Of a stretch of 30,095 nucleotides of DNA, positions 18,321 to 21,778 are shown piece after piece. The notes beneath the pieces were generated by a model. The model ran no database searches and had not been told where the DNA came from. It worked only from the letters and a program-made list of their open reading frames with translations. Source of the stretch: Neocallimastix lanati (nom. inval.) (taxonomy: Eukaryota > Neocallimastigomycota > Neocallimastigomycetes > Neocallimastigales > Neocallimastigaceae); NCBI GenBank assembly GCA_016946835.1, contig JACVTC010000136.1, positions 465,001 to 495,095 on the forward strand, written 5' to 3'. Positions within the stretch are counted from its first letter, which is position 1. Every line of letters begins with the position of its first letter. A program made the position numbers and the translations under genes.

Positions 18321-18338
18321 ATGATAATCTCAAAATGA
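18321..18338 (+). promoter_or_regulatory. Five-codon upstream ORF overlapping the LRR start codon
   Basis: ATG-ATA-ATC-TCA-AAA-TGA begins 14 nt before the annotated start. Its TGA overlaps the main ATG (AATGA), the arrangement expected for terminate-and-reinitiate control. Whether the transcript includes it is unknown. Confidence 0.4.
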
Positions 18339-21300
18339 AATATTTAGCTTTTGTATTTATCTATCTTAATATACTGTTTTATACCGGTAAATGTCAAATT
18401 TTTGCTCAACAAAAACAAATAGAAGATTGTAATTATATTTTGGAATTGGCTAATAAAAATGCTCTTACTCTTTCTGTTGGTGATGAATGTTGTGGATATA
18501 ATACAGGAAGAATTAAATGCAAAGTTTTCAATGGAAGAATTACAGAATTATATATGTAATTAATGAAATTTAAAATTAAAATAATAAGAATTTAATAAAA
18601 AAATTAAATTTAAAAAAAAAAAAAAGGATAGGGATAAGAAAGTAATTGGAAACAATTATAATAGTTATACATGTAATATTATAATATATAAATGAAGATA
18701 TTAATTTTTATATTATTTTTATATAAAATATAAATAGAGAATATTTGTCAGAAGTTCCAACTGGGCTCAATAAACTCACACAATTGGAATTGTTGTTAGT
18801 TTAATAATAAAAATTTTATACACTTTTTTATTATTATTATTATTATTATTATTATTATTATTATTATTATTATTATTATTATTATTATTATTATTATTAT
18901 TATTATTATTATTATTATTATTATTATTATTATTATTATTATTATTATTATTATTATTATTATTATTATTATTATTATTATTATTATTATTATTATTATT
19001 ATTATTATTATTATTATTATTATTATTATATAAATCTAAAATATTTTATAAATATTAATTTTTATTTATTTATTTTGGCTTTAAAAAAATATTTATATAA
19101 TATTCCTTAAAAACTAGTATAGCATCAGGAGAATTTGATGGTAAATTCAAAAATTATTTATATGAAATTTATGAAATTACTAACTTAAAAAAATTGTAAG
19201 ATTATTGAATTTTCACAAAATAAATAAATTAATAAATAAAATTAAAAATAAAAATAATAATAAAAAAAAAAAATTCAATTATACATATATATATATATTT
19301 ATATAATATTTAATAAAAATTTATTATTATATATTTAATATCTTCTCAATTTGTCTTAACTTTAATTTTCAATAATATTTTTATTGAAAATTAAAAAATT
19401 ATTCAAGAGAAATAATAAATCATGAATTTATTAAAAGTGGTCCGTTAGCCAATCAAAGATTAAAAAATTTAGTCAATTTAGAGGAACTGTAATAATTTTA
19501 TATTATATATTTATATCATTTATATCATTTATTATTTTTTAACTTTAAAAATATTATAATTATTTAATTATAATGTATAAATATAAATATTATTAAATAA
19601 TATATCTAATAAATATTTTAGTATATTAGACCGTGTAGCATGTACAAATATGGAAGCCACTTTTCTATTGGAAAATGATATATATTATTTAAAAAATTTA
19701 AAGACATTGTATAGTTTATTATTTAGTTATTTATAAATTTGAAATTAGTTTGATATTGGAATTAAAAAATTGACATTTTCATTGTGAAATTTTATTTAAT
19801 ATTTTATTAGATATCTTAATAGGGTTTCCATTGATTATTTGCCTGCTGGAATTAGTAATTTAACAAATTTAGAAGATCTGTATGTGATATATTATTAATA
19901 CAATATATACCTTTTTATTAATCAAATTTAATTTATTAATTTATATTTTATTGATTTAATTAAATTATTATTATTATTATTATTATTATTATTATTATTA
20001 TTATTATTATTATTATTATTATTATTATTATTATTATTATTATTATTATTATTATTATTATTATTATTATTATTATTATTATTATTATTATTATTATTAT
20101 TATTATTATTATTATTATTATTATTATTATTATTATTATTATTATTATTATTATTATTATTATTATTATTATTATTATTATTATTATTATTATTATTATT
20201 ATTATTATTATTATTATTATTATTATTATTATTATTATTATTATTATTATTATTATTATTATTATTATTATTATTATTATTATTATTATTATTATTATTA
20301 TTATTATTATTATTATTATTATTATTATTATTATTATTATTATTATTATTATTATTATTATTATTATTATTATTATTATTATTATTATTATTATTATTAT
20401 TATTATTATTTATAAATATAATATTTAATTTAATTTCTTAATATAAAGTGAAGTGGGTTATTGTGATCTAGAAATTTTACCTGACGACATCTATAAATTA
20501 CCAAATTTAAAATATTTGTATGTATAAATCTAATATATTTATTATTATTATTATTATTATTATTATTATTATTATTATTATTATTATTATTATTATTATT
20601 ATTATTATTATTATTATTATTATTATTATTATTATTATTATTATAAAAATATTATTAAATTTATCATTTATAAATATATAAATTAAATAATAACTATAAA
20701 AAGAGGAAAAATTATTAATAATTTTCTTTTATTAACATATAAAAAATATAATAATATTCTTTATCTTTATCCTTTTTTTTTTAACAGGAGTTTATTTACT
20801 TTATTAAATAAAAATCTCAAAGTTAAATTATATAATTTTGTAAATAAAATTGAAAATTGTGAAATTGATTTAGATTCTATTGGATGTTATCAGAAAAATA
20901 CATGTGAATATATAAATAAAAATTTGTATAATTTATATATGAGTATGAATTCAATAAGTTTATGTGAAGGTGAAAGTCCTGCTAAACGAATTAAAGAATC
21001 TACTGCTCTCCAAAATATCGCTATCAAAACTGAAAATAAATCAAATCAACAAAGTAATAATGTTGAAAATAATGAGAATAATCAAAGCAATAATGTTGAA
21101 AATAATGAGAATAATCAAAGCAATAATGTTGAAAATAATGAGAATAATCAAAGCAATAATTATACATTAACTATCATTATTATTGCTGTTATGTCATTAG
21201 TTTTCATAATAATAATTGTAATATTATTTATTAAAAATAAAGCTCTTAAAAAAATAAATAAAATGAATCGTGAACCTTCCATTGTTGTAAGTTCATCATA

Positions 21301-21778
21301 TTTGAATATTGAATCAAATGGAAATAGTTCTTCTTCTAATCAAAATTCTCAAGAGCAAATTGACAGTACAGTTAATAATAATGATAATAATAATAATAAT
21401 AATAATAATAATGATAATAATAATTTAATTGTTGGTTTAGATTCTCAGTTAGAAACTACTAATATTAATAATACTGATAGAGATATTAATACTAATATCA
21501 ATCAAGAACCAAATTTAAATTCAATGATTCAAGTAGAAACTAATAATGAAAATAATTATAATAATAATTATCACTCTACTAAAGCATATAATGAAATTAA
21601 TAATATTAATAATGTAAATAGTGAACCAGATAGAAATAATATTAGCAATGAAAATAATGGTCATGTTGGTAATAATAATAACAACAATATTAATATTACT
21701 GATGATGGTAATACTGAAGATACGAATTTGCCACCTTCATATACGGATATTATGAATGAATATCAAAATAGAATGTAA
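18335..21778 (+). CDS. Eight-exon LRR single-pass membrane protein with Asn-rich tail and PPxY
   Basis: Hand-built model: exons 18335-18555, 18738-18794, 19118-19195, 19408-19488, 19622-19708, 19811-19879, 20449-20517 and 20788-21778, giving 1653 nt and 550 residues plus stop. All seven introns are GT-AG and phase 2, cutting the last codon of a repeat (normally Leu). Layout: signal peptide about 1-20; Cys cap with Cys32, Cys52-Cys53 and Cys62, like plant-type LRRNT; LRRs about 66-230, one per exon 2-7 (LxxL spacing, LPAGISNLTNLEDL in exon 6, LPDDIYKLPNLKYL in exon 7); C-terminal Cys cap (245, 254, 260, 280); three 11-residue QSNNVENNENN repeats (309-341); one TM helix (about 346-369); Asn-rich cytoplasmic tail ending with PPSY (536-539). 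Likely a surface receptor or adhesin; the ligand is unknown. Exon 2 is short (19 residues), so the intron 1 acceptor is the least certain. Codons are very A/T-rich, suggesting modest expression. Confidence 0.8.
18828..19029 (+). repeat. Intronic ATT array, about 67 copies (intron 2)
   Basis: Uninterrupted ATT triplets occupy 202 of the 323 bases of intron 2 of the LRR gene. The sense strand carries ATT/TTA, so the pre-mRNA has a long AUU repeat between the donor (18795) and the acceptor (19117). Confidence 0.95.
19964..20410 (+). repeat. Giant intronic ATT array, about 149 copies (intron 6)
   Basis: About 447 bp of uninterrupted ATT triplets fill most of the 569-bp intron 6, 38 bp before the exon 7 acceptor. 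No interruption is visible in the given sequence. True length may differ because such arrays are prone to assembly collapse and to slippage. Confidence 0.95.
20539..20644 (+). repeat. Intronic ATT array, about 35 copies (intron 7)
   Basis: A pure 106-bp ATT array begins 21 bp after the intron 7 donor (GTATGT at 20518). It has the same unit and the same orientation as those in introns 2 and 6. Confidence 0.95.
21050..21160 (+). repeat. 33-nt coding repeat x3 in the juxtamembrane stalk
   Basis: Three consecutive 33-nt units (21050, 21083, 21116), nearly identical in DNA, encode QSNNVENNENN, followed by a partial QSNN that abuts the TM helix. The near-identity at third positions implies recent expansion. 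A length-variable stalk is a reasonable inference. Confidence 0.9.

What the first reader, a model, noticed from the sequence alone, without database searches (positions are those of the whole stretch)
18335..21778. LRR surface protein built one exon per repeat, every intron phase 2 in the same structural codon
Seven GT-AG introns all split the codon after its second base, and in introns 2-7 that codon is the Leu ending an LRR. Exons 2-7 carry 19, 26, 27, 29, 23 and 23 residues, each one repeat, so every internal exon is symmetrical. Any exon could be skipped, duplicated or swapped without breaking the frame, which is an ideal substrate for receptor diversification. Repeat sequences differ strongly between exons, so this is not a fresh tandem duplication. 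An N-terminal CC...C cap resembling the plant LRRNT adds to the interest.
Basis: partly seen in the sequence, partly recalled or inferred. Interest (0 to 1): 0.85.

Follow-up and report, generated by a model that had tools for sequence, protein, structure and literature searches.

The report
Exon-per-repeat LRR surface receptors in gut fungus
A gene of a sheep-gut fungus, with many relatives in the same genome, encodes a membrane-anchored protein whose leucine-rich repeats are each written in one separate exon, a layout known from plants, vertebrates, brown algae and ciliates but unexpected in a fungus.

Summary
In detail: eight exons, seven GT-AG introns, all phase 2, 550 aa with signal peptide, Cys cap, six LRR-like repeats, second Cys cap, TM helix and an Asn-rich tail with a PPxY motif. 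One slip: intron 2 splits Phe, so only introns 3-7 split Leu. The genome is Neocallimastix lanati. The gene belongs to a family: 77 C-cap matches at E<=0.001, 26 in long frames. A phase-blind gene finder gives phase 2 at 142 of 144 LRR-exon junctions in paralogs. One locus strings at least five ectodomain blocks through phase-2 'hinge' exons. Split residue and phase equal those printed for rice LRR-kinases. So the layout is a known kind in a new setting; fungi are reported to have almost no LRR receptors. Function is inferred, and no RNA was mapped.

The parts
18335..18394 (+). signal peptide (about residues 1-20)
   Evidence: hydrophobic N-terminus; no signal-peptide predictor was run
18335..18555 (+). 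exon 1: signal peptide and N-terminal cap (C32, C52, C53, C62)
   Evidence: C-CC-C invariant in this and 13 other caps
18738..18794 (+). exon 2, 57 nt, weak LRR
   Evidence: in the deposited N. lanati model
19118..19195 (+). exon 3, 78 nt, weak LRR
   Evidence: in the deposited N. lanati model
19408..19488 (+). exon 4, 81 nt, weak LRR; alternative in-frame acceptor 30 nt downstream
19622..19708 (+). exon 5, 87 nt, weak LRR
   Evidence: in both deposited models
19811..19879 (+). exon 6, 69 nt, canonical LRR (rank -2); alternative in-frame acceptor 12 nt downstream
20449..20517 (+). exon 7, 69 nt, canonical LRR (rank -1)
   Evidence: in neither deposited model
20788..21778 (+). exon 8: C-terminal cap, TM helix, cytoplasmic tail, stop codon
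20788..20965 (+). C-terminal Cys cap (CEIDLDSIGCYQKNTC ... C), the marker of the family
21170..21232 (+). transmembrane helix, residues 349-369, TIIIIAVMSLVFIIIIVILFI
   Evidence: mean hydropathy 3.48
21731..21742 (+). PPxY motif (PPSY, residues 536-539) near the C-terminus
   Evidence: 10 of 16 family tails hold [PL]PxY
18556..18737 (+). intron 1, phase 2 (Ile codon AT|A)
18795..19117 (+). intron 2, phase 2 (Phe codon TT|T), holds an ATT microsatellite
19880..20448 (+). intron 6, phase 2 (Leu codon CT|T), about 450 nt of ATT repeats; the deposited N. lanati model ends inside it

Best explanation
A type-I single-pass membrane protein of an LRR family of Neocallimastix. Shown from sequence: an LRR region closed by a C-CC-C N-cap and a Cys-rich C-cap, one TM helix, an Asn-rich tail with a PPxY motif, one LRR per symmetrical phase-2 exon, and a family of such genes. 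Inferred: the ectodomain binds a ligand at the cell surface (plant wall, bacterium, methanogen or another fungal cell). The tail carries no kinase or TIR; it recruits a WW-domain partner, most simply a Nedd4/Rsp5-type ubiquitin ligase (link of PPxY to WW domains recalled, not tested), which would govern trafficking or endocytosis. Also inferred: the 2-2 layout comes from ancient multiplication of one repeat-exon. Since then the exon series has been inherited in order, and the family has grown by whole-gene and whole-block duplication (hinge exons are 2-2 too), with occasional in-frame exon gain or loss.
For: Gene model; deposited fragments. Paralogs with the same layout from a phase-blind finder: 142 of 144 junctions of paralog LRR exons phase 2 (one search prints 148 of 150, 6 of them from the hand-built window model). 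110 of 111 junctions that touch an LRR exon against 48 of 84 other junctions in the same runs. Genome-wide, L..NL..L followed by GTAAGT: 208 at phase 2 (reversed control 52), 30 at phase 0 (control 60), 127 at phase 1 (control 46); the phase-1 rows among the 100 printed are one dispersed repeat. Database protein P0029 aligned to locus L059 with free phases: 3 of 3 LRR junctions phase 2 (two further jumps, phases 0 and 1, fall at frame breaks in the last exon). Orpinomyces relative P0028, 47% over 99% of the L072 ectodomain. Same-rank exon test. Multi-block locus. AlphaFold model of P0028: LRR region mostly pLDDT 87-96, helix 384-422, residues 421-624 below 50. [PL]PxY: 10 of 16 tails, about 0.7 expected from shuffles. 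TM found in 13 of 14 long-frame loci examined (not in L045).
Against: No transcript was mapped. Exons 2-5 of the window gene are poor LRRs, exon 7 is in no deposited model, and the finder missed exons 2 and 3. Six of 16 tails lack the motif (L074, L044, L052, L058, L062, L067); two of these six, L052 and L062, are cut by a gap or a locus end. Copies show ordinary constraint: pN/pS 0.39, 0.45 and 0.46 in three pairs and 1.12 in one, on few sites; 2 of the 6 pairs tried were not usable. No ligand, partner or localisation was tested.
Confidence: 0.62

Rival explanations
1. Splicing as a generator of variants: symmetrical LRR exons are skipped in alternative transcripts so one gene yields many ectodomains, as described for brown-algal ROCO genes.
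For: All internal exons are 2-2. The deposited 'constans' model joins exon 1 to 5 and 6 to 8 in frame. Brown-algal precedent with LRR-exon splice variants (PMC11378527, passages).
Against: The two deposited models disagree with each other and one stops in an intron, which looks like prediction error. No isoform data. Exon identities by rank suggest each repeat has its own place.
Confidence: 0.2
2. Adhesin or structural wall protein: the LRR arcs hold cells to plant fibre or to each other, and the tail merely anchors or recycles the protein.
For: Multi-block ectodomains joined by linkers would fit reach and avidity. Window neighbours include three polysaccharide deacetylases.
Against: Tails enriched in [PL]PxY point to regulated trafficking or signalling. 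Carbohydrate-binding residues were not looked for.
Confidence: 0.3
3. The exon layout is shared by descent with plant LRR receptor genes, by transfer from plants or from a common eukaryotic ancestor.
For: Same split residue and phase as printed for rice LRR-kinases: first Leu of xxLxLxx, phase 2 (PMC3050792, passages); 114 of 135 exons here have hydrophobic residues at both positions. The C-CC-C cap columns align with plant proteins. Plant receptors lead the PDB sequence list and the VIA-align list.
Against: LRRs converge easily. Only 1 of 14 N-caps touched Pfam LRRNT_2, E 0.14. In the alignment behind the fold model 7 of 12 rows are named as plant proteins, so its likeness to plants is partly built in; the Foldseek list is led by Leptospira proteins. 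The layout is also printed for vertebrates and brown algae. No tree was built.
Confidence: 0.12
4. Gene-model artefact or pseudogene remnants.
For: Exons 2-5 are weak; some relatives are broken (L059, L071).
Against: Open frame through eight exons, shared caps and tail motif, exons less diverged than introns in 3 of 4 usable copy pairs, relatives in another genus.
Confidence: 0.04

Closest known systems
Plant LRR receptor kinases (rice set, PMC3050792, passages)
   Same: Introns split the first Leu of xxLxLxx in phase 2; exons of 72, 75, 69 nt and others hold one repeat or more
   Different: Kinase inside; here no kinase, an Asn-rich PPxY tail, a C-cap without a Pfam family, hinge exons between blocks
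Brown-algal LRR-ROCO genes (PMC11378527, passages)
   Same: One LRR per 72-nt phase-2 exon; candidate recognition role
   Different: GTPase (ROC-COR) proteins with strong exon shuffling and splice variants; here membrane proteins whose exons keep rank and are mostly 60-75 nt
Gonadotropin receptors (as told in PMC11378527)
   Same: All introns phase 2, similar-sized LRR exons
   Different: Seven-TM receptors (recalled)
Tetrahymena 90-bp-exon LRR genes (PMC6564038, passages)
   Same: More than 96% phase-2 introns, large family
   Different: Exactly 90-bp exons in tens of thousands, successive clonal expansions
Fungal LRR receptors surveyed by Soanes and Talbot (PMC2939053, section 5)
   Same: Their definition, LRR plus a single TM helix, is met
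   Different: They kept five genes in four of 49 fungal species; here one genome has 26 long-frame C-cap exons at E<=0.001 (some are duplicate contigs)

Membership tests
LRR superfamily | Pfam LRR profile over its cut-off | tested here: met
   LRR_14 42.3 bits, cut-off 40
LRR-receptor as defined by Soanes and Talbot (LRR plus one TM helix) | one TM helix besides the signal peptide | tested here: met
   hydropathy peak at residues 349-369; TMHMM and SignalP not run
Plant-type LRR receptor kinase | cytoplasmic kinase domain | tested here: not met
   no kinase in the Pfam scans of the 550-aa protein or of P0028 and P0029
Plant-type LRR receptor kinase | LRRNT_2 N-cap by profile | tested here: inconclusive
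   1 of 14 caps at E 0.14, but C-CC-C columns align with plant proteins
Toll-like receptor | cytoplasmic TIR domain | tested here: not met
   none
Exon-per-LRR genes | one repeat per exon, phase 2, first Leu of xxLxLxx split | tested here: met
   by gene model, expression not shown
Freely shuffled LRR exon arrays (brown-algal type) | exons interchangeable between positions | tested here: not met
   same-rank nearest neighbour 105 of 136, shuffled mean 18.9, maximum 40
Freely shuffled LRR exon arrays (brown-algal type) | splice variants with different exon sets | not testable with these tools
   no RNA data on hand
WW-domain (Nedd4/Rsp5) clients | PPxY-type motif in the cytoplasmic tail | tested here: met
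   PPSY at residues 536-539; 10 of 16 family tails
WW-domain (Nedd4/Rsp5) clients | physical binding and ubiquitination | not testable with these tools
   bench work

The most novel reading that the evidence does not exclude
Anaerobic gut fungi hold a multigene, multi-block LRR receptor repertoire, the first of its kind in fungi, assembled from phase-2 repeat exons and hinge exons. It senses or grips plant, bacterial or archaeal neighbours in the rumen, and it diversifies by in-frame gain, loss and splicing of whole repeats and whole ectodomains.
Probability: 0.25. Interest if true: 0.82.

Novelty: new variant of a known kind. Interest (0 to 1): 0.62.

Why it matters
A survey of 49 fungi concluded that LRR membrane receptors are almost absent from the kingdom (PMC2939053). 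This genome has a family of LRR membrane proteins with a strict phase-2, one-exon-per-repeat layout, split at the same LRR residue as printed for rice. That reopens whether early-branching fungi use LRR receptors, and adds a case to the question why LRR introns sit at the same codon and phase in plants, vertebrates, brown algae and now a fungus. The multi-block locus offers a natural test of how whole receptor ectodomains multiply. The family is probably under-annotated: both deposited models found for this gene are fragments.

Tried and rejected
Rejected: free exon shuffling as the main mode; recent tandem exon duplication in the window gene (exons too different); artefact of hand-picked splice sites (phase-blind finder; free-phase spliced alignment). 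No Pfam identity for the caps: N-caps, best E 0.0044 in 1 of 14; C-caps, best E 0.0052 in 1 of 20, both below cut-off.

Led nowhere: search with the full-length protein gave bacterial and other LRR proteins only (27 at E<=0.001). Literature searches, seen as listings: one search gave 3 papers and none on LRR in this phylum; none; I saw no fungal case among the 10 of 11 papers listed in each. The library is open-access only, so absence in print is not shown. Zambounis 2012 (PMC3341825) was not held and is known here only through papers that cite it. Finder runs on the window outside the LRR gene gave nothing convincing.

In its alignment 7 of 12 rows are named as plant proteins. Foldseek TM-scores by query in the rows shown are low (0.13-0.32). 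Thirteen of the 28 small loci modelled were dropped as covered by larger regions, near-identical copies or without a usable model. The 136 exons include 6 of the window gene. Duplicate contigs inflate genome counts. The run of 52 phase-2 introns that one search reports for C4 crosses an assembly gap bridged by a spurious 2,577-nt exon, so I do not use it. Next to that gap one search puts a C-cap on the minus strand (C4:567919-568062), so the assembly there may be wrong.

Full report
What is there. The window is the end of contig C42 (465001-495095) of a 199-Mb assembly. The length of C42 (495,095) equals that of the contig behind the deposited Neocallimastix lanati protein H8356DRAFT_1364619, so the organism is N. 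lanati, an anaerobic fungus isolated from sheep faeces (PMC8561657, passages). The proposed gene at 18335-21778 is sound as an open model: eight exons, seven GT-AG introns, all phase 2, 550 aa.

Support for the model at this locus. The deposited N. lanati fragment shares junctions 1|2, 2|3 and 4|5, and uses later in-frame acceptors for exons 4 and 6. The deposited N. 'constans' fragment shares the acceptor and donor of exon 5, the donor of exon 6 and the acceptor of exon 8. These choices all keep phase 2. Both deposited models are partial: one runs into intron 6, the other leaves out exons 2-4 and 7 and ends early in exon 8. I cannot say whether the latter reflects skipping or prediction. Exon 7 rests on its LRR sequence, its splice sites and same-rank relatives. 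My phase-blind gene finder on the window alone found exons 2 and 3 only at their donors.

A family, not a single gene. The C-terminal cap finds 46 places in the genome (E<=10). A consensus of the cap finds 92 at E<=1 and 77 at E<=0.001, of which 26 lie in open frames of 200 aa or more and 51 in shorter frames. Of 14 long-frame loci examined, 13 have a strong TM helix soon after the cap (L045 does not). In 12 of the 28 small loci modelled, and four times, the C-cap sits in a hinge exon of 321-363 nt that also holds the N-cap of the next LRR block. The locus C4:561205-577958 reads as at least five blocks in series, with all LRR and hinge junctions phase 2 on both sides of an assembly gap. A second copy has eight C-cap matches on the + strand from C4:615999 to 633132, of which I read parts only. 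Two further LRR genes with other caps (C112 and C1 loci) show the same one-repeat exons, all phase 2.

Is it more than chance. The finder scores codon use and splice sites only; it has no LRR profile and no phase preference. In its models 142 of 144 junctions of paralog LRR exons are phase 2 (one search prints 148 of 150, of which 6 belong to the hand-built window model). Junctions touching an LRR exon: 110 of 111 phase 2, against 48 of 84 other junctions in the same runs (the latter include cap and short LRR junctions, so they are not a clean background). Genome-wide pattern counts point the same way: 208 at phase 2 with a reversed control of 52, 30 at phase 0 with a control of 60, 127 at phase 1 with a control of 46. 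The phase-1 excess is at least largely a repeat: the phase-1 rows among the 100 printed are one sequence or a one-base variant; the rest were not printed. A database protein (P0029) aligned to locus L059 with free phases gave 3 of 3 LRR junctions at phase 2. The split residue is Leu in 96 of 135 exons, and hydrophobic with a hydrophobic residue two positions on in 114 of 135.

How the exons evolve. If exons were swapped freely, an exon's closest relative in other blocks should sit at any rank. It sits at the same rank from the C-cap in 105 of 136 (shuffled mean 18.9, maximum 40); with pairs of 50% identity or more excluded it is 74 of 136 (mean 18.6, maximum 36). For the window gene itself only 2 of 6 exons, 6 and 7, do so. 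Many exceptions are shifted runs: in L042 exons -3, -4 and -5, and in L061 exons -3 and -4, resemble -1, -2 and -3 of other genes, which I read as a tandem duplication of a 72+69 pair. L073 has a 138-nt exon where its sister L070 has two of 69, an intron loss. The Orpinomyces relative lacks a 24-residue stretch that P0029 and L072 have and that matches one exon of L072: a loss, or a missed exon. So the layout does allow in-frame change, and some has happened, but the ordered series is inherited as a unit. Between copies pN/pS is 0.39, 0.45, 0.46 and 1.12, on few sites (4 usable of 6 pairs).

What is known. Rice LRR-kinase introns split the first Leu of xxLxLxx in phase 2 and usually separate repeats exactly (PMC3050792, passages). 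Brown-algal ROCO genes have 72-bp phase-2 exons, one LRR each, with splice variants, and the same paper says that gonadotropin-receptor introns are all phase 2 (PMC11378527, passages). Tetrahymena has 90-bp phase-2 LRR exons (PMC6564038, passages). So the layout is a known kind. New here, as far as my searches reach, are the fungal setting, the hinge-linked multi-block genes and the rank-faithful exons. Soanes and Talbot found LRR-receptors in almost no fungus (PMC2939053, section 5); no Neocallimastigomycete is named in what I read. My searches for such receptors in this phylum showed none, within an open-access library only.

Most likely working. Shown: architecture, family, phase rule, rank conservation, tail motif, all from sequence. 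Inferred: extracellular recognition or adhesion, WW-partner recruitment through the tail, descent from a repeat-exon multiplication. Not shown: expression, isoforms, ligand, signalling.

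Noticed in passing
window 149-1672 (-), 12107-13129 (-), 26604-27590 (-): Three polysaccharide deacetylases (PF01522) flank the LRR gene; the first also has three chitin-binding stretches.
   Followed up: no
L076-L077, C4:561205-577958, and C4:615999-633132: A locus with at least five LRR ectodomain blocks joined by hinge exons, and a second copy about 56 kb further on with eight C-cap matches; an assembly gap and a minus-strand C-cap lie inside the first.
   Followed up: partly
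L071 (C490:1-6500) against L070 (C122): Near-identical 3' exons but a broken 5' half: a decayed or mis-assembled copy at a contig end.
   Followed up: no
L059 (C268:570637): The last exon has frame breaks, while a close database protein (P0029) reads through.
   Followed up: partly
L079 (C112:63500-68500), L080 (C1:356500-361000): Two further LRR genes with one-repeat phase-2 exons but other caps; one has a Thr-rich repeat stretch before the LRRs.
   Followed up: partly
window 21287-21292: A perfect GTAAGT in the tail coding region; the deposited 'constans' protein departs from the model just there and ends YK, so its model appears to splice there.
   Followed up: no
window 18830-19030, 19963-20410, 20540-20645: Long ATT arrays inside introns 2, 6 and 7 of this gene.
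   Followed up: no
genome-wide, e.g. G000:C1:76047-76074: A dispersed repeat containing CTAGCTTTTCTAGATTTAAAAA makes up the phase-1 pattern rows printed.
   Followed up: no
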